A stretch of 64,000 bases of DNA from the NCBI GenBank assembly GCA_921293015.1, contig OV121095.1, positions 33,887,484 to 33,951,483 on the forward strand. Reading direction: 5' to 3'. Source of the DNA: Phorcus lineatus. Taxonomy: Eukaryota > Mollusca > Gastropoda > Trochida > Trochidae. A program made the translations under genes and the position numbers. Numbering within the stretch: the stretch's first letter is position 1; each line of letters opens with the position of its first letter. Below the pieces are notes generated by a model. The model did not search any database and had not been told where the DNA came from. It saw only the letters and a program-made list of their open reading frames with translations. Positions 12,328-62,710 of the stretch are shown here, one piece after another.

Positions 12328-12613
12328 GTTCGTTTGGCTTCGGATCAAGAGGTCCTTTGTTCGAATCCCGCCAGGGGCTCGGCAACTTTGTCTGCAGTAG
12401 AGAACTGTTCTACACGCAATCAGGTTTGGGTGCAATGCTACAATGAATTTCAGTACAATACCACCCATAGTTCGCTAGCTCCAGCCGATGCTCGCAAGTT
12501 CCACCACAATGCATAGCCAAAATGGTGTTGCGGGCTATCTCCCTGCAATAATATTAGCAGCCGCGATATAAGTGAAATACTCTTGAAAGCGGCGTTAAAC
12601 CACATATCACCTC
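12328..12613 (+). mobile_element. tRNA-type SINE, head-truncated copy
   Basis: The body matches the intact copy at 13515: B box GTTCGAATCC, then CGGCAACTTTGTCTGCAGTA, AGAGAACTGTTC, CCAGCCGATGCTCG, CCGCGATATAAGTGAAA and the tail GCGGCGTTAAAC. The A-box half of the tRNA head is missing or degraded. Confidence 0.85.
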
Positions 12614-12807: not shown

Positions 12808-13284
12808 TTAAAGAGCCACTCCGTGTGTTGTTGGAGTCATATATGCCAAACTTAATCAATGGTGTCATTTCATCGCGAAGTATCGACTGCTACCAAAAAG
12901 ACACATTTTAGAGCTTGTTTGTTTTTATCGGTGACAATATGAAGATAGAACGTCGCAATTATGATCGAAAACCGGACAGTGGCGCGCGTCAAATAGTCAA
13001 ACGTAATTTTGGAGACTTATCTAAAACAGCCAGGAGGGCAGTTAGGAGTTGATAGTGTTTGTTAGGTTATTTAACTAGTATCCATGTATATTGGACGTGA
13101 TATCTACACCTCTGTGCATTTATAAGGCTGTTTTTAGATTTTCATGGAAAACCAGTATTTGTCATATTTATGTATTTTGGACATGAAAAGTTAGGATGTT
13201 TTTATTTTATATCACCATATATGACATTTAGGTTCGTATCAAAGGTAAATAATATGTTATGAAAATCATGGAGTGGCTCTTTAA
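12808..13284 (+). mobile_element. TTAA-flanked MITE (family M1), full-length copy
   Basis: The ends are TTAA-AGAGCCACTCCG and a mirrored GGAGTGGCTCT-TTAA, so the inverted repeat AGAGCCACTC is bounded by a TTAA target-site duplication. Length is about 477 bp with no coding capacity. Internal landmarks are GGCGCGCGTCAAATAGTCAA and ACTAGTATCCATGTATATTG. TTAA targeting fits piggyBac-like or Kolobok-like transposases acting in trans. Confidence 0.85.
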
Positions 13285-13514: not shown

Positions 13515-13830
13515 GGGGGCGGGATAGCGCAGTGGTTAGCGCGTTCGGCTTCGGATCAGGACGTCCGTGGTTCGAATCCCGCCAGGGGCTTGGCAACTTT
13601 GTCTGCAGTAGAGAACTGTTCTACACGCAGTCAGGCTTGGGTGCAATGCTACACTGAAATTCAGCGCAGTACCACCCATGGTTCGCTAGTTCCAGCCGAT
13701 GCTCGAAGGTTTCACCGCAATGCATAGCCACAATAGTGTTGCCGGCTTTCTCCCTGCAATAATACTACCTGCCGCGATATAAGTGAAAGAATCTTGAAAG
13801 CGGCGTTAAACACCAACTCACCTCACCTCA
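13515..13830 (+). mobile_element. tRNA-type SINE, complete copy with 14-bp target-site duplication
   Basis: The head GGGCGGGATAGCGCAGTGGT carries an A box, and GGTTCGAATCCC is the B box (internal RNA polymerase III promoter). The body ends GCGGCGTTAAACACCAACTC followed by CACCT repeats. The 14 bases CCTTGTTTAGAAAC flank it exactly on both sides (13501-13514 and 13831-13844), proving insertion by target-primed reverse transcription. Confidence 0.95.
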
Positions 13831-15983: not shown

Positions 15984-16047
15984 GTCTGTTTTTCACTTTA
16001 CACCTTTAAAAATTATGCATTATCTGAACATTCAAAGACCGTCATTG

Positions 16048-16527
16048 TTAAAGAGCCACTCCGTGAGTTGTTGAAGTCATATATGCCAAACTTAATCAAT
16101 GGTGTCATTTGATCGCGAACTATCCACTGTTACCAAAATAGACACATTTTAAAGCTTGTTGTTTTTTACAGTGACAATATGAAAGTTGAACGTCGCAATT
16201 ATGATCGAAAACTGGACAGTGGCGCGCGTCAATTAGTAAAACGTAATTTTGGAGACTTATCTAAAACAGCCAGGAGGGCAGTTAGGAGTTGATAGTGTGT
16301 GTTAGGTTATATAACTAGTATCCATGTATATTGGACGTGATATATATACACCTCTGTTTATTCATAATGCTGTTTTTTAGATTTTCATGGAAAATCAGGA
16401 TTTGTCATATATATGTCTTTTGGACATGAAAGGTTAAGATGTTTTGATTTTTTATCACCACATATGACATTTAGTCTCCTATCAAAGGTAAATAATATGT
16501 TATGAACATCACTGAGTGGCTCTTTAA
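16048..16527 (+). mobile_element. TTAA-flanked MITE M1, second full copy
   Basis: Same ends (TTAA-AGAGCCACTCCGTG and GAGTGGCTCT-TTAA), length and landmarks as the 12808 copy, with modest divergence. Same orientation. Confidence 0.85.
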
Positions 16528-17721
16528 GGTCATAATATTCGGTCGATAAGGATAAACAAAGTGTGTTAGACAAAGATTAAAGTCTAAAATTACAAAAGTC
16601 GAACAAATTTTAATAATAATATAATAATCATTTTATAGTAATAACCCAGTTTGTCATTTAAAAACTATCATCTGAATACTTTTAGGAAACAGTAAAACAT
16701 TTTGGTCGAAATGTGGTTAACAATGCTCTCACAGCAAAGTTTAGTCAAAAGTTATTGACCTAACCGAATTACTAGAGGCAAGTACACGAGAACGTCAAGA
16801 ACTCTTACGTAATCTCTGTTACAATAAATGACCTACCTGCACCTACCTGAAGATATAAGAATAAACTCATATTTCTCTTACGCAAAAGCCGTTTAGATTT
16901 ATGTAAAAATATATGATGATCAAATCCCTCCATAATTTCATAATATACATTCGATGATTTTTTTCTTATTTAACAATATTCTTGTAAACGCCTAGCAAAA
17001 TAATTAAAATTTTTAAATTAAGTTTAACTAGATCTTGATTTTTTTTATCACGGTAACTGTAATAACAGCCTATCTGACTTTTGTTGGTGATCATTTTCTG
17101 TGAACACCAAGTATTCTCACCTGTGTCTATTCAATCCTGTCTCAGCGTAAAACGTATACGCTCCCGCTCCGCGCACATAAGTTATATTCGGGTTATATCC
17201 CAGGGTATGTACGTGGTGAAAAAGCGTAACCGTTTTACCCTTAGACAATGGTAATAATTTGTATTTTGTAGACGCATATATATACGCTTTCAAATATGTG
17301 TCAGATTTGCACAGGTTTGCAAATCCAATCATTCTTTGCGAATAAACATGTTTATACATAAATATATTTTTAATAAGGCTATGTATATATTAGCCAAAGA
17401 AACATGTGAGACGTAAATAACACCCATTTGATTATCAAAACGACGAAGCAAGGCTTTGAGGCAGTCGGTTTCTTTTACAATTTGGTTCAACGATCTGGTT
17501 CGATATTTGATAGCCTTATAACTGTCAGACTAAATGTATTGTCGCAATTTTTTCTGCATTTTCTTATTTTCTCTACTTTTAGATATGGAAGCTATTTTTT
17601 GTGTATCCCTATTCATTAATTTTTTAATTTCGTGAGATAACTGAAATATTTACTTAAAACGTGCCACTGGCTAGTACTGTGCCTTTAAATGTGTTCAAAT
17701 GTAATACAAGGGTATTGTTTC
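16528..17721. other. Intergenic, AT-rich
   Basis: No gene, RNA or clear repeat recognised. A further exon of the minus-strand ShK gene could lie here if its last visible exon is spliced at 17744 rather than ending at the stop. Confidence 0.4.
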
Positions 17722-18350
17722 TCAGGAAAACGACATCAACGTACCGCACAGATTACAGAATCGAGGACACACCAAATGGGCAACACTCTCTTCACATATG
17801 TCATTTGGTAGTAAGGCGCACCCGTCGTTCTGTAGCTCATCTACACAACCAGTTGGGTGCGTTGTCGTCATTGTTAGAATATTGCTTTTGGCTGGAAAAG
17901 TAATTGTTGAACTTTGTGTGGCGACCTTTAATGCTGTCATGTCGGTTGGTATCGCTGTGTTTGGCATGGTTGTTTTAGTTGGCGTTGTTGATTCTGAATT
18001 TGGTATGGTTGTTGATGCAGTTGACATGATTGTTGCTGTAGTTGACAGAGTCGTTGCTGTAGTTGACAGAGTTGTTGATGTGGTTGATAGAGTTGTTGAT
18101 GTAGTTGGCATAGTGGATGCTGGAGTTGACATGGTTCTTGCTGTAGTTGACATAGTTGTTGATGTACTTGGCATGGTGGATGCTGTAGTTGACATTGTTG
18201 GTGTTGCAGTTTGCATGATTAATGCCTTAGCTGACATTGTTGTTGGCATGGTCGTATCTGTAGTCGGCATGGTTGTTGTTGAAGTTACCGTCGTTGTTGC
18301 TGTGGTTGGCGTTGTTGGCACAATTGTGGTTGTCAGGCTTTTTGTTCCCC
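17722..18350 (-). CDS. Gene A exon 7: mucin-like Thr-rich stalk and fourth ShK domain
   Basis: It begins after the minus-strand acceptor CAATGTAACAG (phase 1). About 150 residues are Thr/Ser/Pro/Met repeats of the type TTSTTLSTTATT, a strong O-glycosylation substrate. They are followed by an ShK domain whose cysteines read GCVDELQNDGC, LLPNDIC, HLVCPRFCNLC. The frame ends LCGTLMSFS-stop at 17722-17724. A donor-like G|GTACGT at 17744 sits where the other ShK exons splice, so the stop may belong to one isoform only. Confidence 0.85.
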
Positions 18351-21300
18351 CTGTTACATTGAGGATGTCATAAATAATGTTAAGATTAGTAAAGAATTCG
18401 AAATGGTACTGTTGGATATGTGAAGGGAATCTTTTAAATAGACCAACCATAAAGTATCCTCCACTGACTTTTGTATAGAAATGAATTATTTTAAGAAAAG
18501 GGCCGCGATATTGTTTTTTTGCATTTCGGGTGAAAACAGTACTGCAGTTTTACTTAGGAAACACCACTTAAACATTCATTTTTTGAAATAAAATTGAAAA
18601 TAATGTTAAGCCTCATTAGCAATGCCTTGTAATGCCATAGCAAGGATATCCACACTCTCAGCGCTGAATAATCTAATCGTAAAACATGTGAACGTACTTA
18701 AACGTACAAAAGGCATACCTACACATCATGGTACTGACGGGTGTCAAGTATCGATACATATCGTCAATGAGTGACTGAATTGTGAGCGGAACAAAATTGA
18801 AGATTTTGTAAATCTTGGACTGAAACCTACAATAGGAGCATTCATAGATCCTTATGATTAATTGTCTTCATTTTTCTACCTTCCGAGCGTAAGCGAGTGA
18901 AGGCCGGGGCACACAATATACACGGAAAAATAAAAACATGTGGACAAATTATAATACAAGGGACTGAAACGTACATGCAAAAGCCACACCAACATTTCAT
19001 AGTGCTGACATGCCAAGTTTCTTTACATTCCAAGAAAAAGGGACTGAATAATTAGCAAACTTAATAATAAGATCGAAAAAACTGAGGAAATTTGCACAGA
19101 TTATGCAAGTAAGGGACTAAAACATCCCTACCTAATGATTTAACGTGGTAAGATTCTTAATATTCCAACAATAAGTGTGTGAGTTATATATCATGTTTTA
19201 CGGAAATTAAAAAAACCAATTGAACATATTATGAAAAATAGGAACTGAAACATGTAAAGGGGACATCTGCACATACAGTGATATTAAACAATTATTGACT
19301 TCAGGTGAGGTTGATCCAATGATTTATCGACCTTTGACATGTGATATTCACAGAGGTTAAGCCGAGGTGAATATCACATGTCCAAGGTCGATAAATCATT
19401 GGATCAACCGAGTCTGATGTCTATAATTGTTTTATTTTATGAATTAGGTCTTACCAGGAGTACCATTCTTCTGAGATTTCCGGTAGACCGGGATTTTTAA
19501 AATCTATTTTTATCCACCGGAGGTGTTTGGATTGTTATATCAACCTCACGCGACCCACACAGGTTGACATCGCTTGACGTCATTGCTGTCATGTAACCAA
19601 GTAGGCCAATCAGAAAGACGTAAATAATCCATTCATATAATAATATGAGTTATGTCTTCGAATTGGACGCGCTGACCGCTATAACCCCCCTTCACCAACA
19701 ACATCATATAAACTGTTGGTTGACAACGACTTTTTGCACAGAACTTACCACACAAATTACAGAACCTAGGGCATACCGCATGCGCAATGGCATCGTTGCA
19801 AATGTTCGGTAAAGAGGCGCAACCGTTGTTTTCTACTGTATCAATACACGGAGCAGTTGTAGGTGTTGTAGTTGTAGTTGAAGTCGTTGTTGTAGTGGTT
19901 GTTGAAAATCTGTTCATGAAGCTTTTGATAACAGTTTGCAATTTCGCAGCTGTGGGACAAAAATAATATAGTTCATTGCGAATTCTGTAATATTAGGTGT
20001 GCAATTGACATTAAATTTCATCATAAAACTTGTTCAATCAAACAAAACTAAATGCCTTGATACTTTACAAAACATTTGTCTGTATTTAAGCGTGTAAAGC
20101 ATTAAAACTATTAAAGAAAGTATAATTTTCGTCAATGTAGATAAATCTAGATAACAGGTTTTGTTTGTATCAACATAATAAAGAGCTGTCAATCACTAGA
20201 TTTGAATTGTTTAAACTGACTTTCAAAAGAAATTTTAGTTAACACATTTGTACGGTCCAAAATTAAGAGACTTGTCCCCCTTAGTTTATGCACAGACATA
20301 ACGCACAGGGCCGAGAGAACTTAAAGAGCCACTACGTGATTTTTATAACATATTATTTACTTTTGATACGAACCTAAATGTCATATGTGGTGATATAAAA
20401 TCCAAACATCTTAACTTTTCATGCCCAAAAGACATACATATGACAAATACTGGTTTTCCATGAAAATCTCAAAACAGCCTTATAAATGCACAGAGGTGAA
20501 GATATCATGTCCAAAATACATGGATACTAGTTATATTACCTAAAAAAACACCATCAACTGCTAACTTCCCTCCCGGCTGTTTTAAATAAGTCTCCAAAAT
20601 TACGTTTGACTATTTGACGCGCGCCACTGTCCGGTTTTCGACCATAATTGCGACGTTCTACCTTCATATTGTCAGTGTAAAAAAAAACCAATAAGCTTAA
20701 AAATGTGTCTGTTTGGTAAAAGTGGATAGTTCGCGATCAAATGACACCATTGATTAAGTTTGGCATATATGACTCCAACAACTCTCGGAGTGGCTCTTTA
20801 AACAACCCCACTTTACCCGCTGTTCGAAATTTGTTGTGAGATTTCAACGTCTTCACAGTGAAAAAGTATCTAACTTTTCTATACAATGTTACCACGGAAC
20901 GGGGATTGCCTTTTAACCCTAGGCCATGTGAGATAACCCTAATAGTTACCACAAAGTCCACAGCTTTGGGGGCACAACTTCACTGCAAGGGAATCTGCGC
21001 AGAACTTTGGACTTGAAAGAGAGGCACACTCGTTGTTTTTCAATATGTCCTTGCAGTACCCCTCGTCTCCGAACTTAGACTCTACGTAGTCACAGAAACC
21101 ACATGTCTTTTGACAAACATGAACCCCTAGATGACCCTGGGAAAAGCGAAGGATCATTATCAAAATTGGCATATAGATAGTTAAAGGAATAAAAAAATGT
21201 AAAGATTGACACTACTGTAAAGTTTTCTAGAATGTCTGACTTCTGAATATCTGAAAATAACTAGTTCAATGCTACTGGTTAAGCACAGAGTTAAGAAACA

Positions 21301-24300
21301 TTTGAAGTGATGAATTTTGTTAGAAAACCCAAAAAAACCGTACAAAACAAATAATATTGGGTTTTTTCAAAATTAATTTTTTTAATTAGAGTAATCTTAT
21401 TTGACTTGATTTTCCTTTCGATCTTGCATTTTTTTAAGTAATAAGTATCCAGATGCTCACACTAAGTCTAGTGTCCATAGTATTTGGCGCGATGGTATTA
21501 AACACAGACTGTAGCTCAAAGCCTGTTAACCTACAATTCCACGAGCCCTCTTGATTTGCCAAGATCTGGATTGAGCGACAATAAATCAGACAACCTGAAG
21601 TTCACATTGTTCTTTATTCGTGTTTCGAAGCTTAAAACCATTGATGGTTCCGCGTTCATTTGCAATTAGTTTCCCACAATCAAAACTGTCCATGTCCAGG
21701 TTTGATTGTTAACCAACATCCATCTGATTTGAGTAATTGTAACCCATTTGGATTGTTAACATCAAATTCTAACATCAAGTTGATTTGAATCAACTCGGCG
21801 GTAGCTCCAAATCACGAATCCGATGCTAAATTTTGTCTGCTAAACAATCATTGCGCTAATCTGACTCATCGTTAACCTCTTGTTGTCACTTTCTGATATC
21901 TGATATGACCTATTATAAGTCTCTATGGATGCCATTTCTCATAGGCTTCTTATTAAACAAATATAACACTTTTAAAGACTTTAAGTGGGCTACGAACTTA
22001 CAAGACAGGCACCTTCAGAGGCTAATGTCTGGCAGTTGCTCATCATTGAGACAACATCATCTTGACAAACATAGGGAGCTGGTGTTGTCGGCTGAATATG
22101 ACGTGTTGTTGTCGGCTGGACGTGAATTGTAGTTGTCGGCTGGACGTGATGGGTTGTCGACTGAACGTGACTTTTTTCGAATGGAACTGAAAGCAGATAA
22201 GCTTATCTCGATGAAATCAAGATAAATCTTGTACTGAGGTACGAGAAAAGGGTTTCCACCTGATGTCTGTGACATTGATCGATAAGCAAAGCGAAAATTA
22301 TAATTCAATTAAAAATAATAACCATTTCAAAAATTAAATACGTTTTCTTTTGTGGTTGTTTAATTTGGTTGAAGTTCAATTTTGCGATTGTGCATAATTC
22401 AAAACATAATATATTTGTAACTAATAGTTAATGAATTAGAGAAGTTAAAGTAAAGAACAGGTTGATAGATATGAGATTCTAGTTTTGGTTCTATTATGCA
22501 TTTTGGGGTCTTCAAAAGCACATAGATGAGGGACTCCTTCATATATTATTCATTATTAAATATAAAAATCACTTACGGTGAGCAGCGATCATAGCATTTT
22601 CAACGCAGCTCTCATCTCTGCAACACTTGTTCCCATAGCAATACTAAACATAATTGAGAGAAAATATTCATTATCTTTTCTGTTATAAAGATAACAAAGT
22701 TTTACGCCTTGATTTGATTAAGCGGAAATGTGCAACCGTATCCCGGACGCCACACCTGTTAGAAGATTAATGACCATTTTTTATTTATAGATAAAAAAAT
22801 TCTTTGCATAGGCCAGTCTATGATTATGATTCACCGGACGTGGGACACCGTTTTTAGGTAATTTTTATTTACAGACACACAACTTCTTTGATCCGCATTA
22901 AACATCAAAGATATCGACACTCGAGATGTGTTCAACTTTGTCTTGTCCCTAAACGCACTAGTGCACGCCAATATTTCGTAAACACAACGAATGCACATAT
23001 ACTACATATCTCTCGATATGACTCACTATTCTCACTCAAGTAATCTACCTCGTAAGTTATTTAAGTGGATTTTAAAGGCCGGATGTATTTAATGTTACGT
23101 TACATTAAATCCGCATGAACTACGATATCGGAAATATTAAAATTTTGCTCATAACTGAATAAGCGGAAACGGCAGCCGCTTTGGTCAATCTAATAACAAT
23201 GCTAATAATGTGTTATCAAAGACAGTTAAATCGGTTAATTTACAACATTGCCATCCTGTCTCCATCTTCCCCGCAAGGCCAAGCTAGCGCACGTTATCTA
23301 TAAACGTGCTCATCTTATTTAGGCAACGTTGGCTAGCTAGGCTTTGCGGGGAAGATGCCCTGTCTCAGGGTAAGACGTATAGCTGACGCTCCACTCTTCT
23401 TACCCTGGGTGTAAACCCCAACAAAACTTCGCGCCGCAACCCATAATTCAGCCAATCAAATACTTTTATCGCGATGGTGTGCGATAAAATTTCAGCCAAC
23501 CAAAGAGAGCCTCTCGCACAGAAGTTGACTTCCGCTCTTAGCTGAATGGCGACGTCCATACATAAACAAACAGGAATCGAAAGTTTACACTAACAATACA
23601 CTAATTCTATTATTGCTAAACACACCAAAACCATTCTCCCCAAACCACTCACTAAATTCAAAACATACAGCAAAAACACAAACATAGATAGGGCAATCAC
23701 TAAACTACAAACATGACACATACAACTAACGCAAAAACACAACAGACCAGACACAAGCATCCCACATGTCCACACTGCAAACAAACAGAAACAATCACCC
23801 ATATACTCACACAATGTGCACACTACAATACACATCGCAAAATCCTAAACACCACTCCCTCACGACACAACATCAACCAACACAACATCCAACAATCCTC
23901 AACCCACACAACAAACCACAAATATTCCATGCTCTAGGCAAATACATCAAAGATACGGGCCTTCTGGCTCGTATCTAAATACCTCACAATCATATACCAT
24001 AAATTAACCCCCTACCCTCCTGCACCCTCCCCCATCCCCAGCCCCCTTCCTTCTCCCCCTCTCTACTAAATATATCATTATCGTGGTGGTTTGAATGATC
24101 CAGAGAACCCTAGAGCTATGCCAGTCGGAGCTTACATGCTCCTTGCGGGGGCACCCAAGCTTGATAGGTCGTCTAGTGGAAGTCAGATCAAATTTTAGTC
24201 GTTCTAAAACCTCTTGTCTATCTCTTACTATGCCTGTAATTCCGTCTTTTCCCTCATCCTTTGGATCCTCTTTTGGATGCTTGTCATCCACGTGTTTATA

Positions 24301-27300
24301 ATAACTGAAATATTGTTCAAAACACGTTAAATCCAAACTCACGATCATGCACTCACTCACTCACTCGGTTTGAATTTGAAGGATGTGCGCTGCCATATTA
24401 AAATGCCGACTCGCCTTTTAAGCGCAGTGATTGGTTGATTATTTTTAGAAAGTTTGTGGGGAAAAGTACATGGCGCGAAGTTTTTGCTGGGGTAAGAAGA
24501 GTGGAGCCTCAGCTATATGTCTTACCCTGAGACAGGATGCAACATTGCTTTAAAAACATAAATCATTATTTGTTCTCAGTTCAGAGTTTAGGTAAATTCA
24601 ATAGCTGCACACACTACTAGTTCAGCCGTTTCCAAGTGTCAATAATTTATCCGTTTTGTGCACAGCTAACCATAGATTTTCATATGTTCAAGCCGACATC
24701 GGCTGTCTTAACGTTTTCATTGTTGATTGCAGGTCAACTGTAAAGAATGCTTAGTATTTCATTGCATCGATAGAAAGTTTATGTGAATGCATAAGTCCTC
24801 GTAAACCTTAAAATAGCCAATTTAAACCGTAAAAGCGTGACCTAGTGCCTTTAAATCGGTCAGTTTTTCTAATTATTGTTAATGTATAATGTTAACAACA
24901 TCAATTTTCTGTGAGTGCAGTAAAGTTAGTAAATACATGAAGAACGTGACACCTCATTTACAGTTTAGAGTTCGATATTTTGAGGCACTTCCTTTGTCTT
25001 CGAGGAGGAGGCTACAAAAATAAAAGATATTAATGATCTTTTAGAATATACCAAATATCATACCATGTAAATGTTATATCCTCTGAATTGTCTTTATTTA
25101 AAATAAAGAAGGCGTTCGAAAATATTACTGTTTATATGTATAAATGTATTAATGTATAAATAATAATTTTAAGTTAAAATCCACTGGAATTAACACTGAA
25201 ACAGAAAACTTATGACAGAATATATATTGACTGTACAAATACAAATATTGACTGCAAGTATTAACTCGTTTTTATCTTAAAGGCACCGTAGCACGCAATT
25301 TCGCGATAAATTTGTCTATTCTAGGGCATCTGAGGTCCTATTCACTCGATCACTTGTGGTTTGTATTAATGAAGGAAATTACTTATTGATAATACAATTA
25401 ACCTTAATCGGTAACGAATAATGAAAAGTTTAAACTGAGGAAAGTCAAAAAGGGAGGTACAAGATTTTAAGCATCGATAATGCAGAAAACAATTATTGTT
25501 AATAACGGCTGAACTTTGAAATATACAAGAATATCTTAACTTAGGACAGAGGCAAGATATACAAGAAAATCTTCGTTATTAACATATATATGTAACTTCC
25601 TCCGTCCCCATACATAGAGTATAAGTATTACTGATGTACCAAACATAGTTGCTGCTTGACAGGCCGTATGCAAAACTGAAAATTGCCGATATCGTAGTCC
25701 ATGCGTATTTACTGCAACGTTGCATTTAGCACTTCCGGTCTTGTGGAATGAGATTTACAACTTGAATACATGAATTTGTTAAAAAAAACTCTTCATAGTT
25801 TATAACCTGAGTGCGAGTCTAAAATAGTACTATGGATTATAAGTGCAGTTTTTATATTCATGGAATATTGGTTTGCACTTGCGTCTATAAATATTGAAAT
25901 GCCATCGTAAGCAATTTTTTGAAAGTCGCCCTAAAAGGATTAATTTTCAGGATATGTTGCCATTTTCAAACAGAGTAAGATGTTTAAATTCGCAATGTTT
26001 TTCATTCTGATGCAAACTACAGTCCATTTATACAAATAAACCGATGACCTAAAAATCATTTTGTTTGCAGAGTATGAAATGGGTTGTCGACAAACAGTAA
26101 AATACAGGGGTTTTGTCGTTTTGTTCACATACTTTAGTATAAAAAATACTTGATTTATACATTTAAATAAACAATTACCATAAATTTTGACTATTTATAA
26201 GAAAGAATAATTATACAGTTAAAACATAAAATAACTAGAATCGGTTGGCATGGATCCTCGTTAGCTCGAGTCGTAAAGGCGAAGCTTGACAATATAAAGG
26301 TTCCGGGATTTAAATTCCTCGTTTGACAACGTTAAGGAGATTACTTACCTGACTAAATTGTTTTTGTAACGTATTATAGGGACAGTAAAACGTATCAAAC
26401 GTATCAAACGTTCAAACGTTCCCCAATAAAAAATAGTTATGCAAAATTAAGGTAATATATTTCAGGTGGTCAAAACATCTCATTACTCAGCCCGTAGTCG
26501 AAGAAGAAGAGATACTGTATCAAATAAAAAAGCCACTGGGGGCCAATTTTATGTGAACAACTTTTAATCATTTGACATGGGGAAATTTATTCTCGCAGTT
26601 TAACCACTTATGTTACATCCTTTAAAAAATCCTTCTTTTGATGAAAATAAATTGTCTTGCATTGGAACTATAAATCCTGTATTCGTGAAATCACTCTTTC
26701 TATTTAAAATGGTACGCGTCTTATTGCTGCTATATGTTAAACGGGGTGTAATGCCATGACTATGTCAGTGGGATTAAACCAATACATAAAGACCTTTTTG
26801 ACATTTATCACAGCTGTATAAAACTTCATGAAACATACTTTATCACTGAGAATATGTAAAATATATGGAGATCTTACCGTCTCAAACTGACATCCGACAG
26901 GGGTTGGCATTTTCTTGTCGCCATGAAAGTTGAGTTGGAAACCACAGACCTATCATGATTAAATGAAAGAATGTATAATCACCCTATAGTGTTTGAGGAA
27001 TATATCAAGCTCTTGTCAAATAGATAGCTCAACTCATATCCCTACACTAACATATGTTCTAATACGAGCCCATCACGCGCTAGAGAGGAAATAAGCCTGA
27101 TTGGATTCATCCTCCCACTCAAGGTGAAAATGTATCCAGATCGATTCTTTTCGTTTCGATCGTGACATTGTGAAGATGTATTTGATGCAATAGAATTTAT
27201 TTTTGCAATCAGCCATCGTGGTTAAAAGGGGCGGGATAGCGCAGTGGTTAGCGCGTTCGGCTTCGGATCAAGAGTTCCGTTGTTCGAATCCCGCCAAGGG

Positions 27301-28682
27301 CTCGGTAACTTTGCCTGCAGTAGAGAACTGTTCCACACGCAGCAATGCTACACTGAATTCAGCGCAGAACCAACCATGGTTCGCTATTTCCAGCCGATGC
27401 TCGCAGGTTTCACCGCAATGCATAGCCATAATGGTGTTGCGGGCTTTCTCCCTGCAATAATACTAGCAGCCGCGATATGAGTGAAATAATCTTGAAAGCG
27501 GCGTTAAACACCAACTCACCTCACCTCGCGCTTAAAAAAATTATTTCACGAAGAACCCCAGTCATATCCATATGCTAGAATTCATTCGAAAATGCACTTC
27601 GCACCAATGCACAGGCCTCGGAGAAGCGCTAGTATTGAAAAAGAGGTTAGGTACACATAGGACATGAAATTTTCATACTTCACTTGTGTAAAACCTTTAT
27701 CAAGAAGATGGTAAGTTTTTAAATCTTTATAGGTCATCATATGACTCATTTTATTATTCTCAATTGGTAGATTTAAAATGATGGCTTCGTAAACCCAACA
27801 ATATTAAAATAATCAGAGAAGAAACACTCATAAACTTGATATTTATCATGAAATTGTTTCCCTAGAAACACGAGTAAGAATTTTCCCTGGAAACTCATCA
27901 AGAACCAGCGTACTCGTATCAATTATCAAATGAAGATGTAGCATTTTGCGTTTGAACCGATAAAAATTTTTTTGACAAAATACAATGAAAGACAACATCG
28001 AATCAGTTCGATGGCTCCACGACAAATGATTTAGAATAATCATATTGAACATTTAGCCTGTTTTTACTTTTTACTTTCCTTTCCTCTCCGAAGCCAATTT
28101 AATCTTAATCAATTATCAATCATTGAAATACGCCGGGGAAATATTGATGAGTATTTGAGATATAATGAGTCCATATGAGCTCGTTGGAGCACGTTTGGAA
28201 CACATAGAGGGCTTCTTAAAAAGTGTAGTATGGATGCCGTCATATGATTTGAAATTCATTGTTCATTGTTCATTCTGTCTGAATCATTGCATTGGTCTCG
28301 GTGACTACAAATATGTTATATATGCATGCGGCGTTTTCATTGGCTTAACTATTGTAGTAGGGAATCCCCGAAAGCCCGAAAATACCTCCTACTACAACAG
28401 AAGTTCGTATAGGAATTTATTATAAGGATACCTCTTTTGGGGAGAGAATGCCCTTGGTTTAGTCAGCAAGAAATGTTTTACCTCCGCTTGACTACAGAGC
28501 TTTTCATGACACGTCATTTTAACAAGGCTGTGATCTTGACCGTTGTCATGGCCGTTGTTGTGGCCGTGGCCGTTGGAGTGGTCGTTGCTGTCGCACTGGT
28601 AACAGGTCAAACAATAGCTCTGCACAGCACATAGCGATATGACTGGAATTAAAGTTACAGACTTTTTAAGAGACATTGACAC
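17722..28682 (-). CDS. Spliced secreted gene A: signal peptide, Ly6 domain, Thr-rich linkers, four ShK domains
   Basis: Gene-level model, transcribed from 28682 down to 17722, with exons 28482-28682, 26878-26949, 22577-22643, 22002-22186, 20950-21136, 19749-19949 and 17722-18350. All phases agree (0, 0, 1, 0, 1, 1). The product has an N-terminal signal peptide, a Ly6/uPAR three-finger domain over three exons, then Thr/Pro-rich spacers alternating with four six-cysteine ShK (ShKT) domains. It is predicted secreted and heavily O-glycosylated, with no membrane anchor. ShK domains occur in channel-blocking peptides, metalloproteases and nematode mucin-like proteins. The function of this combination is unknown to me. 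A paralogue lies at 58985-62710. Confidence 0.8.
18480..19308. other. Intron of gene A
   Basis: No further exon recognised. Contains GCGTAAGCGAGTGAAGGCC near 18890, possibly repeat debris. Confidence 0.4.
19309..19409. repeat. Near-perfect 43-bp-arm hairpin
   Basis: GGTTGATCCAATGATTTATC (from 19309) mirrors GATAAATCATTGGATCAACC (to 19409). The arms continue through GACATGTGATATTCAC and GTGAATATCACATGTC around a 15-base loop. Almost no mismatches, so either recent or maintained. Confidence 0.9.
19749..19949 (-). CDS. Gene A exon 6: Thr-rich spacer and third ShK domain
   Basis: Acceptor TTTTTGTCCCACAG and donor G|GTAAGT (minus strand), exactly 67 codons, phase 1-1. It encodes a short basic stretch, a run of Thr, then PCIDTVENNGC, SLPNIC, HAVCPRFCNLC, a complete ShK cysteine set. 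A symmetrical phase 1-1 exon carrying one module can be inserted or duplicated without breaking the frame. Confidence 0.9.
20321..20801 (-). mobile_element. TTAA-flanked MITE M1, reverse-orientation copy in an intron
   Basis: TTAA-AGAGCCACTACGTG at the left and GGAGTGGCTCT-TTAA at the right. The interior is the reverse complement of the 12808 copy (CCGGTTTTCGACCATAATTG, TTGGCATATATGACTCC). It lies in the intron between gene A exons 5 and 6. Confidence 0.85.
20950..21136 (-). CDS. Gene A exon 5: end of the first ShK domain and whole second ShK domain
   Basis: Acceptor CGCTTTTCCCAG, donor G|GTAACT (minus strand). It enters in phase 0 and leaves in phase 1. It opens with HVCQKTCGFC, completing the ShK domain begun in the previous exon, then a short linker and a full ShK domain (YCKDILKNNEC, KFC, KLCPQSCGLC). 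The GTAACT donor is a non-optimal consensus but is conserved in the paralogue. Confidence 0.85.
22002..22186 (-). CDS. Gene A exon 4: HVQPTTT repeats and first half of an ShK domain
   Basis: Acceptor ATCTGCTTTCAG, donor GTAAGT (minus strand). It enters in phase 1 and leaves in phase 0. Four repeats of the type HVQPTTT precede VCQDDVVSMMSNC and EGAC, the first three cysteines of an ShK domain. The intron cuts the module after its third cysteine, unlike the other ShK domains here. Confidence 0.85.
22577..22643 (-). CDS. Gene A exon 3: C-terminal part of the Ly6 domain
   Basis: It is 67 bases long, phase 0 in and 1 out, donor C|GTAAGT. It encodes YCYGNKCCRDESCVENAMIA. The Cys-Cys-x-x-x-x-Cys arrangement with preceding cysteine is the closing signature of Ly6/uPAR three-finger domains (CC-x4-CN type, here with Val after the last Cys). 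The paralogous exon at 62644-62710 has exactly the same length. Confidence 0.8.
23359..24536. mobile_element. 1.2-kb element with about 50-bp terminal inverted repeats
   Basis: CCTGTCTCAGGGTAAGAC starts it and GTCTTACCCTGAGACAGG ends it. The arms continue through a shared GGGTAAGAAGAGTGGAGC block. GATGC stands next to both ends, a possible 5-bp target duplication. The superfamily is not recognised. The interior is not a transposase but a LINE 3' fragment (next entry), so it is non-autonomous. Confidence 0.75.
23713..24370 (+). mobile_element. LINE 3' end inside the inverted-repeat element
   Basis: It encodes TCPHCKQTETITHILTQCAH, the C-P-x-C...H-x-L-x-x-C-x-x-Y zinc knuckle at the C-terminus of many non-LTR ORF2 proteins. 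The frame is then lost, with ALGKYIKDTGLLARI-stop in another frame ending near 23978. The 3' region runs to a GAAATATTGTTC..CGTTAAATCC tail and (ACTC)n at 24350-24366. Confidence 0.65.
24540..25640. other. Intron of gene A
   Basis: AT-rich; no exon or recognised repeat seen. Confidence 0.4.
26246..26340 (+). mobile_element. Second tRNA-like SINE family, decayed copy
   Basis: ATGGATCCTCGTTAGCTCGA, then GTAAAGGCGAAGCTTGACAA and GTTCCGGGATTTAAATTCC resemble the better copy at 53270 (A box TAGCTGAAATGGTAGAGG, B box GGTTCGAATAC). A reverse-complement version sits at 56255-56305 in the other arm. Confidence 0.55.
26878..26949 (-). CDS. Gene A exon 2: middle part of the Ly6 domain
   Basis: It is 72 bases, 24 codons, phase 0-0, acceptor TTAATCATGATAG, donor ACG|GTAAGA (minus strand). 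It encodes VCGFQLNFHGDKKMPTPVGC then QFET. The C...GC spacing fits the central loops of a three-finger domain between the first exon's C-x-x-C and the last exon's CC motif. The inverted duplicate arm at 55,680-56,740 lacks this segment. Confidence 0.65.
27228..27529 (+). mobile_element. tRNA-type SINE copy
   Basis: GGGCGGGATAGCGCAGTGGT head, B box GTTCGAATCCC, body and GCGGCGTTAAACACCAACTC tail as in the 13515 copy, with a short internal deletion after ACACGCAG. It lies in the first intron of gene A. Confidence 0.9.
28482..28682 (-). CDS. Gene A exon 1: signal peptide and start of the Ly6 domain
   Basis: ATG at 28680-28682 opens MSMSLKKSVTLIPVISLCAV, a basic N-region and hydrophobic core typical of a signal peptide, then CLTCYQCDS (the Ly6 C-x-x-C start). 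A His/Gly/Asn-rich insertion (NGHGHNNGHDNGQDH) follows, then MTCHEKLC. The exon is 67 codons, donor GAG|GTAAAA, phase 0 out. Met-3 is an alternative start. The low-complexity insertion is unusual for a Ly6 loop and could bind metal, which is speculative. Confidence 0.75.
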
Positions 28683-28810: not shown

Positions 28811-29000
28811 TTGTTGAGTTTTTTGATGGTTTTTTTGTGTGGTTGTGGTCATGACTGTGGATGTGGCTATGGCCGTGGGTTTTGTCATTACTTTAGCAGT
28901 GGTTACGGGTCAGACAATAGCTCTTCACAGCACATAGCAATAGGACTGGAATTAAAGTTAAAGGATTTTAAGAGACATAGACACACTCGGACAATGATAT
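28811..29000 (-). pseudogene. Decayed tandem copy of the signal-peptide exon
   Basis: On the minus strand it begins MSLKIL then a stop. After one indel it continues like exon 1 (LIPVLLLCAVKSYC), but the CYQC cysteine has become Arg (CLTRNHC). The His-codon-rich region is also recognisable. The flanks align as well (ATATACTTGCAG, GACAATTT, CTTCATTGT), so the unit is about 300 bp, with a third trace at about 29,090-29,120. Confidence 0.8.
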
Positions 29001-30892: not shown

Positions 30893-31870
30893 AAGAGCTT
30901 GAAAGATTTGTAACTAATGATTCAAGAGTAGTCAATAAATAAGAGCTTGAACGATTCGTAACTAATGATTCAAGAGTAGTCAATAAATAAGAGCTTGAAC
31001 GATTCGTAACTAATGATTCAAGAGTAGTCAATAAATAAGAGCTTGAACGATTCGTAACTAATGATTCAAGAGTAGTCAATAAATAAGAGCTTGAACGATT
31101 CGTAACTAATGATTCAAGAGTAGTCAATAAATAAGAGCTTAAACGATTCGCAACTAATGATTCAAGAGTAGTCAATAAATAAGAGCTTGAACGATTCGCA
31201 ACTAATGATTCAAGAGTAGTCAATAAATAAGAGCTTGAACGATTCGCAACTAATGATTCAAGAGTAGTCAATAAATAAGAGCTTGAACGATTCGCAACTA
31301 ATGATTCAAGAGTAGTCAATAAATAAGAGCTTGAACGATTCGCAACTAATGATTCAAGAGTAGTCAATAAATAAGAGCTTGAAAGATTCGTAACTAATGA
31401 TTCAACAGTAGTCAATAAATAAGAGCTTGAAAGATTCGTAACTAATGATTCAAGTGTAGTCAATAAATAAGAGCTTGAACGATTCGTAACTAATGATTCA
31501 AGAGTAGTCAATAAATAAGAGCTTGAACGATTCGTAACTAATGATTCAAGAGTAGTCAATAAATAAGAGCTTGAACGATTCGTAAATAAGGAGCAAGAGT
31601 AGTCAATAAATAAGAGCTTGAACGATTCGTAACTAATGATTCAAGAGTAGTCAATAAATAAGAGCTTGAACGATTCGCAACTAATAATTCAAGAGTAGTC
31701 AATAAATAAGAGCTTGAACGATTCGTAATTAAGGAGCAAGAGTAGTCAATAAATAAGAGCTTGAACGATTCGTAACTAATTATTCAAGAGTAGTCAATAA
31801 ATAAGAGCTTGAACGATTCGCAACTAATGATTCAACAGTAGTCAATAAATAAGAGCTTGAACGATTTGTT
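30893..31870. repeat. 48-bp minisatellite, about 20 units
   Basis: The unit GAGCTTGAACGATTCGTAAC then TAATGATTCAAGAGTAGTCA then ATAAATAA repeats with few differences. Variants include CGCAAC for CGTAAC in a central block, shortened units near 31,580 and 31,720, and single substitutions. Because 48 is a multiple of three, one minus-strand frame stays open for 228 codons (TTLESLVTNRSSSYLL repeated), but there is no sign that it is a gene. Confidence 0.95.
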
Positions 31871-32215
31871 ACTATAATGAATCAATTAATCTTTATTTCC
31901 GTACCGAAGAGGCCTCAGGCCTATAGTACATATACAGAAGTAGTTGGGATTTACATGAGTTAATACTTTGAACTATAGTGATATGACATATGTTCTGTAC
32001 TTCATTGCATTGTAGATGTACATAGCAAGATTTTGTTGTGTAATTTGATTTTTTTCTGTTCATTAGATTACAGAATTTTATAATACTTGGATGGACTTAG
32101 TAGTACCGTTTAATATACTTACATTGTAATGCATTATATACTGATAGAATAAAAAGAAAATGGTATTCGTCTTCTATTTCATTTAAAGTACAAAGTGTAC
32201 ATATTGTGTACATAT
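31870..32215 (-). mobile_element. LINE 3' fragment
   Basis: The minus strand reads ICTLCTLNEIEDEYHFLF with stops further on, again the C-terminal zinc-knuckle region, and ends with GGCCTGAGGCCTCTTCGGTA, similar to the 29,715 element's tail. It abuts the minisatellite. Confidence 0.65.
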
Positions 32216-58571: not shown

Positions 58572-59050
58572 TTGACTTGTAAAGCGGAATTGTTGACCCC
58601 TATACTTACTTTGGATTATTCACTTTTCAGAAACACATATTTTAGTTAGAAAGAAAGACTTACCACACACTTACCACACAGATTACAGAATGTAGGACAT
58701 ATTGTTTGGGCCATGTTCTCTTCACATAAAGATGACTTGGAAAGCGGAATTGTTGACCCCTATACTTACTTTGGATTATTCACTTTTCAGAAACAGGTAG
58801 TTTAGTTAGTAAGAAAGACTTACTACAACTTTCCACACAGATTGCAGAATCTAGGACATATTGTTTGGGCCATACTCTCTTCACATAAAGTTGACTTTAG
58901 ACAGCAGAATTGTTGATCCCAATTTACTTTGGATTATTCACTTTTCAGAAAAAACATAGTTTAGTTTGTAAGAAAGATAACTTACTACAACCTACCACAC
59001 AAATTACAGAATCTAGGACATATTGTTTGGGCCATGTTCTGTTGACATAT
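58572..59050 (-). repeat. Three tandem copies (about 158 bp) of an ShK half-exon
   Basis: Units at 58572-58730, 58732-58890 and 58892-59050 each contain GGATTATTCACTTTTCAGAA and, on the minus strand, the ShK C-terminal half (ENMAQTICP.FCNLCG). The third is the real end of gene B. In unit 1 a perfect donor G|GTAAGT is kept. In unit 3 it is GTAGGT followed by an in-frame TAG. Confidence 0.85.
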
Positions 59051-59286
59051 ATCATATGGTAACAGTTTGCATCCGTTGTTCTTCAGTTCATCAACACATT
59101 GAAGAGCATTGGCTGTAGTTCTTGTTAGCGTAGGCAATCCCTTGGGCGTGATTGTTGTTGTGGGTGTAGTTGTCGTTGTTGTAGTTGTTTTCGATGCTGT
59201 AGGTTTGGTTGTTGTTGTGGTTACTGTTGTTGTCCTACTTGTGGTTCTTGTCGTGGGAACGATTGTTTTCATGATTTTCGTTGTAT
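58985..59286 (-). CDS. Gene B exon: Thr-rich stalk and last ShK domain
   Basis: Acceptor TAAATGTAATAG, phase 1. About 55 Thr/Pro/Lys residues precede QCVDELKNNGC, LLPYDIC, QTICPRFCNLC, then GRL-stop (TAG at 58985-58987). If the donor G|GTAGGT at 58995 is used instead, the exon is 291 bases and phase 1-1 like its neighbours. Confidence 0.85.
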
Positions 59287-62200
59287 CTATTACATTTAGA
59301 AAGCCATTATCTCTAAGGAATAAATCGTAGTGTGACAGAAGTTATTGAGGTGAGGTGAGTTGGTGTTTAACGCCGCTTTCAAGATTATTTCACTTATATA
59401 AATATCGCGGCTGCTAGTATTATTGCAGGGAGAAAGCCCCCAACACCATTGTGGCTATGCATTGCGGTGAAACCTGCGAGCATCGGCTGGAAATAGCAAC
59501 CATGGGTGATACTCCGCTGAAATTCAGTGTAGCATTGCACCCAAACCTGACTGCGTGTAGAACAGTTCTCTACTGCAGACAAAGTTGCCGAGCCCCTGGC
59601 GGGATTCGAACCACGGACCTCCTGAACCGAAGCCGAACGCGCTAACCACTGCGCTATCCCGCCCCCAAGAAGTTATTGACAAATGATAGATAATAAGAAA
59701 AACTTACCACACAGACCACAGAACCTTGGACACACAGAACGACCAATATCACCTCGACACACATTCGGTACAGAAGCGCAGCCATTGTCCTCGACTGAAT
59801 CTTCACATGATGTTGTTGTTGTTGCAATGGTGACAGTTGTTGTTCTTGTCAAAAATTCAGTTATAACGTTTAGCATTTTCTTTTCTGTGGAAATAAAAAT
59901 AGTTAATTCAGGTATGGGGGAAACGGTTAATTCTAGATCATTAACATTTTCGTCTCAATCATATTGAAATCTCTTTTTAATCTGAGAATTCAAATACTTG
60001 ATTTTACTTATTAGACTGAAGTGAATACTTTTAATTGATAGACAAAATCATGACTATATGTAAAAGAAATGCCCTCAAAGAGGTTAGTCAACTAAAAGAG
60101 ATATCTCTAGTGGTATAAGCTTTAGAGAGTGTCCTGTATCACATCATCAAGAAATGACACCACAATGCTATGACGCCATGATCATGACGACATTAAAGAG
60201 CCACTACTTGAGTTGTTGGAGTCATATATGCCAAACTTAATCAATGGTGTCATTTGATCGCAAAGTTCCGATTGTTACCGAAAAAGACACATTTTAAAGC
60301 TTATTAGTTTTTTACAGTGACAATATGAAGGAAGAACGTCGCAATTATGATCGAAAACCGGACAGTGGCGCGCGTCAAATAGTCAAACGTAATTTTGGAA
60401 TCTTATCTACAACAGCCAGGAGGGCAGTTAGGAGTTGATAGTGTTTGTTAGGTTATATAACTAGTATCCATGCATATTGGACGTGATATCTACATCTCTG
60501 TGCATTCATAAGGCTGTTTTTAGATTTTCATGGAAAACCAGTATATGTCATATATATGTCTTTTGGACATGAAAAGTTAAGATGTTTTGATTTTATATCA
60601 CATATATAAATATGACATTTAGGTTCGTATCAAAGGTAAATAATATGTTATGAAAATCACGGAGTGGCTCTTTAAGATGATATGGCATTGCTGCAATGAA
60701 ATCCTAAAGGTAGCGTCTTGTTCAGAGATGTACATTTTTCATGAAAGCAAATAAAATTATTTTGGATGTTAATTAGAATTTTATCTTGTGATATGAAGTC
60801 CATCAACACTCGTTGATAAAAGTGAAGCAAGTCTCAGATATATATGAATTTTATCATCTCGTGATGTATACACGAAAACGGAAGACTCTTGGAAAATATT
60901 CTCCATCTATTCCCCGTAGAACATCTTATTGTAAATCCATCAATAATGTTGGAACAAGCCACCAATAGTTACCACATAGTCCACACGTATAAGGGCACAT
61001 GTTGAGGGCAAGAGGATTTTTGCAAATGTCAGAATTTAAATGTTTACGAGCATCACACTCGTTGTTCATCAGAAGATCCTGGCAGGGTCCCCGATCACCG
61101 AAGTGAGATTCCACATAGTCACAGAATCCACAAGTCTTTTGACAGAGTTGAACGCCCGATTGGCTCTGTCAGCAGTAATGGAGTCATTTTCAAACAAAAG
61201 CGTAAATAATACAGATCAATCGATACTCATACAGGAAGACAGATGGTTGCTGGATAGCAGCTCCTATATTGAAACAGGTATTGGCGTTTCGGAGTATACA
61301 CTTAATCTGCCATTTTTTTTACAAGCAACGTGTTGAATTATCATTAAACGTTTTTACCGTATATCGTTAACTATAATGTCAACTATGTTGCTACTGATGC
61401 TGTCCTCGCAACTTTAAAAAATCCACAGTGACCTCTGTATACCGGTTGTTAACATAATCAAAACGATGAAAGATTGTTGTATCTCCATTTCTTTGCATGT
61501 ATTCCGTTGGCAAATTTTGCTAAATTCTTTAGCTAAAGTATGTGCACAAGAAACGTAATCAATCAAACGAGAGGTAAATAACTTACAGAGCACACACCGC
61601 TGGAGACTAATGACGGGCAGTTGCTCATTAACGAGACAACCCTATCTTGACAGTTGTAGGGAGGTCTTGTTGTCGGCGGAACAAGTGTTGTTGTTGGTGC
61701 ATTATGTGTTGTTGTTGTCAGCGGAACATGATGGATGAATGGAACTGGGGACAGACGCATGTTGGTAATCTAAACTAAAAGTCACATGTTCTATGACTCA
61801 TGTTAATTATAATCATTTTGGGTCGATATGGTCGTTTTCTAATTACGTTTCTCATTACATCTTTGTTGCTCAAGATTTAAGTTTTAATAGAAATTCAATT
61901 TTTTCTTTTTTTTTTATTCTCGCAAATCGTTTGACGTTTTATAGAATGATCTTTGTGTTGATGACCTCACTCATTCAAGAGTTCATTTGACGTTTTACGA
62001 TATTAAAGGGTACAGAGAAGGGGTCAAATTCGATAAGTTTTTTTTATTAAAACGAGAAATTAGCATTCGAATTCTAGAACAAGTCTAGAACATTAACAGG
62101 TTAAAGTCTAGATGATTTAAATCGAAAACCTGACAATGGCTGCCGGAAAATAATTACAGAAATGTTTTTATAGTAGATCCAACGCTAGACAAACCTTGTT

Positions 62201-62710
62201 GGTTGTCAGTAGGTCATTAAACAAATATACATGTATACAGGTAAAACAATTTGAAACCATATAGCCGTTTTCGATAACAGGTTAATATAAGAAAATTCGA
62301 TAATGTTGGCAGCGATATAATCTGATTAAAATCAGATTACGTATCGCGCGCTTAACATTTGTCCATTATCAATATGCGATACTGTAGCTTGTTAAACGGA
62401 AACGAAACGAAACGGAAATAAAACGAAACGAAATTACATCTGATTTTAATCAGATTGGGCAGCGATATAGAAGTAAATTTATCTAGACTTGAACTTAACT
62501 CAAGACATAAAGTATTTCGACTTTTATTAAGCCCGCAAACAAAATTGATAAAATATTTTTGTCACTTATAAATAATTCAAAAGTTTGGGTTTCATTCATC
62601 CATCTACCTATTTATCATTGTAGCAATTGTATAATTCACTTACCGTGGGCAGCAGCCATCACCTTGTCGACACAGACATCGTCTTTGCAACATTTGTCCA
62701 CATCGCAATA
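58985..62710 (-). CDS. Spliced gene B: paralogue of the Ly6-ShK gene (5' partial)
   Basis: Gene-level model with exons, in transcript order, 62644-62710, 61587-61744, 60973-61165, 59708-59884 and 58985-59286. The phases are the same as in gene A. It encodes the end of a Ly6 domain, a Thr-rich spacer, ShK 1 and 2, a Thr-rich spacer, ShK 3, and a Thr-rich stalk with ShK 4. The signal-peptide and middle Ly6 exons were not found up to 64,000 and probably lie outside. The mucin stalk of the last exon is much shorter than in gene A. Confidence 0.8.
59349..59667 (-). mobile_element. tRNA-type SINE with 12-bp target duplication, between ShK exons
   Basis: Full-length reverse copy (GGGCGGGATAGCGCAGTGGT on the minus strand; tail GCGGCGTTAAACACCAACTC). 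AGAAGTTATTGA flanks it on both sides (59337-59348 and 59668-59679). It splits the short intron between two gene B exons. Confidence 0.95.
59708..59884 (-). CDS. Gene B exon: Thr-rich spacer and third ShK domain
   Basis: Acceptor TTTCCACAG, donor G|GTAAGT, 59 codons, phase 1-1. It encodes MLNVITEFL, a short Thr run, then SCEDSVEDNGC, SVPNVC, RSVCPRFCGLC. Orthologous to gene A exon 19749-19949 with a shorter Thr run. Confidence 0.9.
60130..60880 (+). repeat. Hairpin MITE-like repeat, copy 2, split by M1
   Basis: 60140-60192 (ATGACACCACAATGCTATGACG) and 60676-60880 (GATATGGCAT, AGATGTACATTTTTCATGAA, TATTTTGGATG, CAACACTCGTTGATAAAAGT) together match 7976-8280. M1 sits between them. Confidence 0.7.
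60193..60675 (+). mobile_element. TTAA-flanked MITE M1, inserted in another repeat
   Basis: TTAA-AGAGCCACTACTTG and GGAGTGGCTCT-TTAA ends, full length. It lies within the gene B intron. Confidence 0.85.
60973..61165 (-). CDS. Gene B exon: end of the first ShK and whole second ShK
   Basis: Acceptor TACTGCTGACAG, donor G|GTAACT (same unusual donor as gene A). It enters in phase 0 and leaves in phase 1. LCQKTCGFCDYVESHFGDRG is almost identical to gene A, then PCQDLLMNNEC, SDIC, NMCPYTCGLC. Confidence 0.85.
61587..61744 (-). CDS. Gene B exon: Thr-rich spacer and first half of an ShK
   Basis: Acceptor GGGGACTGTCCCCAG-like, donor GTAAGT, phase 1 in and 0 out. VPFIHHVPLTTTTHNAPTTT precedes NCQDRVVSLMSNC and SGVC. 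It lacks the HVQPTTT array of gene A. Confidence 0.85.
62320..62457. mobile_element. M2 short copy with 12-bp target duplication
   Basis: Ends ATCTGATTAAAATCAGATT and ATCTGATTTTAATCAGATT. GGCAGCGATATA flanks both sides (62308-62319 and 62458-62469). It contains a GAAACGAAAC run. It lies in the gene B intron. Confidence 0.75.
62644..62710 (-). CDS. Gene B exon: C-terminal part of the Ly6 domain
   Basis: 67 bases, phase 0 in and 1 out, donor G|GTAAGT. YCDVDKCCKDDVCVDKVMAA matches gene A's YCYGNKCCRDESCVENAMIA position by position, all four cysteines conserved. Confidence 0.8.

What the first reader, a model, noticed from the sequence alone, without database searches (positions are those of the whole stretch)
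17722..28682. Mosaic secreted gene joining a Ly6/uPAR domain, mucin-like stalks and four ShK domains
Seven minus-strand exons link in phase into signal peptide, Ly6 three-finger domain, Thr-rich spacers and ShK modules. Both Ly6 and ShK are disulphide folds used for receptor or channel binding, here on an O-glycosylatable scaffold. I do not know this combination from described proteins. It suggests a mucus or haemolymph recognition or structural protein (inference).
Basis: partly seen in the sequence, partly recalled or inferred. Interest (0 to 1): 0.85.

Follow-up and report, generated by a model that had tools for sequence, protein, structure and literature searches.

The report
Mollusc mucin-like protein with disulphide knobs
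A predicted mollusc gene joins a small Ly6-like cysteine domain, threonine-rich mucin-like stalks and four ShK domains in one secreted protein, and several gene copies keep this layout; it is most likely a mucus or surface-lining glycoprotein of a known general type with an unusual front end.

Summary
The 3' end is unresolved. Five copies on three contigs, one of them partly in this window, keep the same eight-exon order, strand and phases, with dN below dS in all 30 of 40 comparisons where dS could be computed. Two separate genes are very unlikely. A more distant set on a fourth contig also has Ly6-like exons upstream of ShK exons.

ShK identity is confirmed, though the domains are divergent. 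Ly6/uPAR identity rests on cysteine pattern only: the third finger is collapsed (4 residues against 15-17), the hallmark Asn is missing, and profile tests did not support it. I call it LU-like.

Best explanation: a secreted mucin-like glycoprotein that lines or cross-links mucus, built like nematode PHAT and Toxocara MUC proteins, with an added LU-like module, His-rich in three of five copies. None of 19 ShK domains has the Lys-Tyr pair of channel blockers. Ten paper searches, some with capped lists, showed no description of the combination.

The parts
   Evidence: like exon in 5 of 5 copies at 1.89-2.35 kb upstream; 2-4 of 400 shuffles per locus pass the test
28482..28642 (-). gene A exon 1: end of signal peptide and Cys 1-4 of the LU-like domain, with His-rich first loop
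   Evidence: phase 1 in, 0 out; aligned in 5 copies
26878..26949 (-). gene A exon 2: Cys 5-6 of the LU-like domain
   Evidence: phase 0-0; found in 5 of 5 copies
22577..22643 (-). gene A exon 3: Cys 7-10 (CxxxxCCxxxxC) of the LU-like domain
   Evidence: phase 0 in, 1 out; found in 5 of 5 copies
22002..22186 (-). gene A exon 4: Thr/Pro stalk and first half of ShK1
   Evidence: phase 1 in, 0 out; 5 of 5 copies
20950..21136 (-). gene A exon 5: second half of ShK1 and all of ShK2
   Evidence: Pfam ShK 22.5 bits, cut-off 20.9; 5 of 5 copies
19749..19949 (-). gene A exon 6: Thr-rich spacer and ShK3
   Evidence: symmetrical 1-1 exon; Pfam ShK 15.7 bits, under the cut-off; AlphaFold model of this ShK, best of five pLDDT 85.6, weakly matches ShK structures
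17745..18350 (-). gene A exon 7: 167-residue Thr-rich repeat stalk and ShK4
   Evidence: symmetrical 1-1 exon; 21- and 63-bp repeats; no Pfam hit on its own but six Cys and aligned with the other ShKs
62644..62710 (-). gene B (paralogue) exon 3, LU-like Cys 7-10
61587..61744 (-). gene B exon 4, stalk and first half of ShK1
60973..61165 (-). gene B exon 5, second half of ShK1 and ShK2
   Evidence: Pfam ShK 21.2 bits, cut-off 20.9
59708..59884 (-). gene B exon 6, Thr spacer and ShK3
   Evidence: Pfam ShK 15.8 bits, under the cut-off
58996..59286 (-). gene B exon 7, Thr-rich stalk and ShK4; exons 0-2 of gene B lie beyond the window's right end (C32:33954705 down to 33951692)
   Evidence: no Pfam hit on its own
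28845..28987 (-). partial duplicate of gene A exon 1 with an in-frame stop, probably a dead copy
   Evidence: 81% identity over 144 bp; TAA inside

Best explanation
The gene encodes a secreted, mucin-like glycoprotein of a mollusc. A signal peptide sends it out of the cell (inferred from sequence). Thr-rich stalks would be O-glycosylated and extended (inferred). Four ShK modules and one LU-like ten-cysteine module act as stable disulphide knobs on the stalks, holding the protein to other mucus or surface glycoproteins and cross-linking them (inferred, by analogy with PHAT-5, which lines the C. elegans pharynx). The ShK modules are probably not channel blockers, because the Lys-Tyr pair is absent (the absence is shown on sequence). 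The His-rich first loop of the LU-like module may add metal- or pH-dependent contacts (speculative). The LU-like exons 1-3 form a phase 1-1 block between a phase 1 signal exon and phase 1 stalk exons, which fits insertion by exon shuffling into a ShK-mucin gene, followed by gene duplication (inferred).
For: Five loci, on C32 (two), C1 (two) and C17, carry the same eight exons in the same order, strand and phases. pN is below pS in 40 of 40 comparisons (10 pairs, four domain blocks) and dN below dS in the 30 where dS is not saturated; LU-like dN 0.28-0.67 against dS 0.75-2.14. Between genes A and B, blastn gives seven matches: two interspersed repeats, four stretches in exons 4, 5, 6 and 7 of gene A, and one 39-bp stretch in intron 2. 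A signal exon is found in 5 of 5 copies. ShK: Pfam over cut-off in exon 5 of A and B; the profile of 14 ShK domains hits five PDB sequences at E<=1, 7l2g 'ShTK domain protein' at 7e-4 and ShK itself at 0.02; the four Foldseek matches are three ShK or ShK-homologue peptides and one CRISP. Stalks are 31-55% Ser+Thr. No KY in 19 of 19 ShKs. PHAT and Toxocara MUC proteins share signal peptide, ShK repeats and Ser/Thr-rich spacers, and PHAT-5 lines the pharynx (PMC2563036, passages).
Confidence: 0.55

Rival explanations
1. A soluble recognition protein of mucus or haemolymph: the LU-like and ShK modules bind microbes or parasites and the stalks hold them apart.
For: Multi-copy family whose LU-like domain has higher dN than its ShK domains in most pairs; limpet mucus ShKT protein P-vulgata_14 was proposed to be antibacterial (PMC7333891 passages).
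Against: No sign of positive selection (dN below dS in 30 of 30 computable comparisons of 40; whole-domain averages cannot exclude it at single sites); no lectin or other recognition domain over Pfam's cut-off.
Confidence: 0.2
2. A structural protein of another secreted matrix: shell or periostracum matrix, egg capsule, or reproductive gland secretion.
For: The same build (Thr-rich stalks with cysteine modules) would suit any of these; three held papers hold the words ShK, shell matrix, mucin and mollus together (listing only, not read).
Against: No evidence here points to shell or egg.
Confidence: 0.15
3. A secreted ligand acting on receptors or channels, by the Ly6-like or ShK fold.
For: Both folds are used this way in other animals (established knowledge; passages of PMC4839075, PMC12236594 and PMC7333891).
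Against: 0 of 19 ShKs have the Lys-Tyr pair; the third finger is collapsed; long mucin-like stalks are unusual for a ligand (general knowledge).
Confidence: 0.07
4. Two neighbouring genes, one LU-like and one ShK-mucin, wrongly joined.
For: No cDNA available; a separate signal exon for the ShK part inside intron 3 was not specifically searched for.
Against: Five collinear copies with phase-matched junctions; exon 3 has no stop and exon 4 does not begin with anything like a signal peptide (by eye); intron 3 is 390 to 1337 bp in the five copies; a distant set on C39 has the same order of LU-like then ShK exons.
Confidence: 0.03

Closest known systems
C. elegans PHAT proteins (phat-1 to phat-6)
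   Same: signal peptide, ShK modules (phat-1 has four), Ser/Thr-rich predicted O-glycosylated spacers; PHAT-5 lines the pharynx (PMC2563036 passages)
   Different: ShK is the only motif listed for them, no LU-like domain; sequences not compared here
Toxocara canis mucins Tc-MUC-1 to 5
   Same: secreted mucins with ShK/SXC modules; for Tc-MUC-1 to 4 the toxin dyad is reported missing (PMC7333891 and PMC2563036 passages)
   Different: no LU-like domain named in those passages; parasite larval coat
Ly6/uPAR (LU) domain proteins such as CD59, SLURP1, LYNX1
   Different: third finger 4 residues (2 in the C39 set) against 15-17; Asn after the last Cys missing; no profile similarity; joined to ShK stalks
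Limpet pedal mucus protein P-vulgata_14
   Same: mollusc secreted protein with a ShKT domain lacking the dyad (PMC7333891 passages)
   Different: [quoted passage not shown] no LU-like domain listed
Argos-like two-finger (2FTX) proteins of protostomes
   Same: small disulphide domains with two fingers, mostly secreted, present in molluscs (PMC12236594 abstract, sections 6, 9, 11 and passages)
   Different: two or three 2FTX domains per protein; intron phases given there for cone snails (0,1,0 or 0,2,0) differ from 1,0,0,1 for exons 0-3 here; no sequence or structure comparison was made

Membership tests
ShK/SXC domain (PF01549) | six cysteines in ShK order | tested here: met
   19 of 19 domains from five genes have six Cys with CxxxCxxC end; the C17 ShK4, whose frame is broken, and the C39 ShKs were not in the count
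ShK/SXC domain (PF01549) | profile match over Pfam's cut-off | tested here: met
ShK/SXC domain (PF01549) | sequence-profile similarity to chains with solved ShK structures | tested here: met
   7l2g E 7e-4, ShK E 0.02 and three weaker
ShK/SXC domain (PF01549) | ShK fold | tested here: inconclusive
   [not shown]
ShK channel-blocking toxins | Lys-Tyr functional dyad | tested here: not met
   no KY string in 19 of 19 domains; dyad as described in PMC7333891 passages
Ly6/uPAR (LU) domain | ten cysteines, LxCxxC start | tested here: met
   7 of 7 domains (five A-type, two C39) have ten Cys; LxCxxC in 6 of 7, FxCxxC in one
Ly6/uPAR (LU) domain | CCx4CN end | tested here: not met
   CCx4C in 7 of 7, but V in place of N in 7 of 7; definition from PMC4839075 passages
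Ly6/uPAR (LU) domain | three fingers, third between Cys 7 and Cys 8 | tested here: not met
Ly6/uPAR (LU) domain | sequence-profile similarity to known members | tested here: not met
   no relevant Pfam hit, no PDB profile hit at E<=10, hhalign probability 0.7-1.4% against 97.3% for the positive control; Cys-fixed shuffles reached the score in 5, 0 and 4 of 40
Ly6/uPAR (LU) domain | disulphide pairing and fold | not testable with these tools
ShK-mucins (PHAT, Tc-MUC type) | signal peptide, several ShK modules, Ser/Thr-rich spacers | tested here: met
   signal peptide judged from hydrophobicity, no predictor was run
ShK-mucins (PHAT, Tc-MUC type) | O-glycosylation and secretion to a surface | not testable with these tools
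   needs protein
Argos-like 2FTX | two-finger fold | not testable with these tools
   same limit on folding a spliced domain

The most novel reading that the evidence does not exclude
The N-terminal domain is a two-finger derivative of the Ly6 fold, perhaps particular to molluscs, whose His-rich first finger binds metal ions and so sets mucus cross-linking, with ShK-mucin stalks as the scaffold: a mucin class with tunable gelling that I did not find described in the held papers.
Probability: 0.12. Interest if true: 0.7.

Novelty: new variant of a known kind. Interest (0 to 1): 0.45.

Why it matters
Mucin-plus-ShK proteins are known from nematodes, and a ShKT domain from limpet mucus, but a family that also carries a Ly6-like module did not turn up in the paper searches made here. 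If expressed in mucus cells, it gives a concrete set of genes for asking how molluscan mucus gels are cross-linked. It also shows a Ly6-like cysteine frame in which one finger is all but gone, which bears on how small disulphide folds change, and a likely case of exon shuffling with clean phase 1 borders.

Tried and rejected
A further exon after ShK4 was sought by comparing downstream regions of the copies (five, four); I saw only what look like interspersed repeats and chance matches. Pfam UPAR_LY6 (PF00021) gave nothing in this genome; the tool warns that this does not show absence, and genes match exon by exon. hhalign against canonical LU proteins gave probabilities of 0.7, 0.9 and 1.4%; Cys-fixed shuffles reached the observed score in 5, 0 and 4 of 40, so one of the three alignments did exceed its shuffles. 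The same tool did relate the A-type domain to the C39 domain (85.1%, E 6e-6). ShK against LU-like profiles gave no relation. The other ShK clusters at C32:34.2M, C5, C17:31.4M and C2 matched neither of two LU-like cysteine patterns in the 10 kb held for each. tRNA search of the window was empty. The collections of prokaryote and virus contigs, phages and plasmids were not searched, as not relevant to an animal gene.

Rows dropped before counts: of 13 matches I count the 11 at E up to 0.08 and drop two at about 0.9 (C39:5650378, 5650104). Of the 11, five are the A type with LU-like exons; of the six on C39, three have a pair of LU-like exons upstream (the pairing is by position), and none was detected for the other three. 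In one search I drop two weak matches (C9 and C25, E above 2). For exon 0 of gene B three other candidates were listed, one of them the same frame from an earlier Met, so B's start codon is uncertain.
Full report
Setting. The window is part of contig C32 of a 957.8 Mb genome in 74 contigs. The genome has 16 matches to the molluscan haemocyanin beta-sandwich family, in two clusters of eight on C12; one stretch from there has PDB haemocyanin 3j32 as its top-scoring chain. I take it as a mollusc, perhaps a gastropod (inference; the species is not known).

The gene. The reading gives LU-like exons 1-3, a stalk with ShK1 split over exons 4 and 5, ShK2 in exon 5, and ShK3 and ShK4 after Thr-rich spacers in exons 6 and 7. 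Two corrections apply. In all five copies a short exon beginning with Met and ending in GTAAGT lies 1.89-2.35 kb upstream, in gene A at 30697-30673. It was picked from 2, 4, 2, 1 and 2 candidates in A, B, C1a, C1b and C17, nested starts counted. A stricter test is passed by all five and by 2, 4, 4, 3 and 4 of 400 shuffles. In A and C1a the DNA upstream of this exon shares a 15-base stretch with CCAAT (by eye). At the 3' end a GT follows ShK4 in four of five copies, so the protein may be longer; no next exon was found.

One gene or two. A search with the first 250 residues finds matching exons at other places. Exon-by-exon comparison of the window and twenty fetched stretches gives five loci with eight exons in the same order, on the same strand and with the same phases 0,1,0,0,1,0,1,1: gene A, gene B (window right end and beyond), C1:46.81-46.82M (C1a), C1:54.08M (C1b) and C17:16.30-16.31M. 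Exon 7 of the C17 copy is broken in frame. Identity between copies is 36-62% in the LU-like part (24 of 67 to 45 of 73 residues) and 51-70% in ShK1-2 (41 of 81 to 59 of 84). pN is below pS in 40 of 40 comparisons; dS is saturated in 10, and dN is below dS in the other 30. At the DNA level genes A and B share seven blastn matches: two interspersed repeats (489 and 320 bp), four stretches that fall in exons 4, 5, 6 and 7 of gene A, and one 39-bp stretch in intron 2 (places worked out from its coordinates). A more distant set on C39 has LU-like exons followed by ShK exons, and its LU-like domain is related to the A type by profile (85.1%).

How it may work. Signal peptide, Thr-rich stalks (54%, 55% and 31% Ser+Thr in exons 7, 6 and 4) and disulphide knobs are the plan of PHAT proteins, one of which lines the C. 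elegans pharynx, and of Toxocara mucins (PMC2563036 passages). Limpet pedal mucus of one kind is described as probably a cross-linked gel that needs strong reducing agents or harsh alkali to dissolve, and limpet mucus holds a ShKT protein without the toxin dyad (PMC7333891 passages). I infer a mucus or surface-lining glycoprotein in which the knobs cross-link; metal binding by the His loop is only an idea. Exons 1-3 together, exons 4-5 together, exon 6 and exon 7 are all bounded by phase 1 introns (for exon 7, if the donor after ShK4 is used), which fits building by exon shuffling and duplication.

Novelty. Ten searches of the held papers were made. Those that asked for Ly6 or uPAR with ShK and molluscs gave no paper or three that look unrelated by title. 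Searches were looser and their lists were capped (20 of 1,956 and 15 of 83); the one listed paper that holds all four terms is a catfish transcriptome study, not read. One search (LU domain, mollus) gave only PMC12236594. Of all listed papers I read passages of PMC7333891, PMC2563036 and PMC4839075, and the abstract, three sections and passages of PMC12236594; the rest were seen as listings. No database of eukaryotic proteins was available, so annotated relatives may exist unseen.

Noticed in passing
30893-31874: A 48-bp minisatellite, 20.5 copies at 95% match, ends about 200 bp upstream of gene A's corrected first exon; part of it reads as a 255-residue open frame on the minus strand.
   Followed up: partly
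58568-59049: A 160-bp unit including the 3' half of gene B's ShK4 and its donor is present in three copies; the two extra half-ShKs have stops upstream in frame.
   Followed up: partly
27228-27527 and 59347-59665: Copies of an interspersed repeat (also at 13516-13829 and 12331-12613, 85-89% identity) that looks like a tRNA-derived SINE by eye, though ARAGORN found no tRNA; they lie in introns of gene A and gene B.
   Followed up: partly
20320-20801 and 60193-60676: A roughly 490-bp repeat, with further copies at 12808-13284 and 16045-16528 (89-91% identity), lies in intron 5 of both genes, in opposite orientation.
   Followed up: partly
23359-24536: 47-bp inverted repeats, 96% complementary, 1084 bp apart, in intron 2 of gene A: perhaps a non-autonomous transposon.
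   Followed up: partly
43571-44068: Endonuclease domain of a LINE-type element (Pfam PF14529, 3e-15).
   Followed up: no
33527-34027 and 54537-54917: Pieces of Tc-type transposases (Pfam PF01498, 31.9 and 58.5 bits against a cut-off of 31.5).
   Followed up: no
3543-4851: Two open frames on the plus strand with Myb/SANT-like DNA-binding similarity, one over Pfam's cut-off (33.7 bits), one under it (19 bits).
   Followed up: no
G000 C12:7646582-7661095 and 16557773-16572398: Two haemocyanin gene regions with eight beta-sandwich domain matches each.
   Followed up: no
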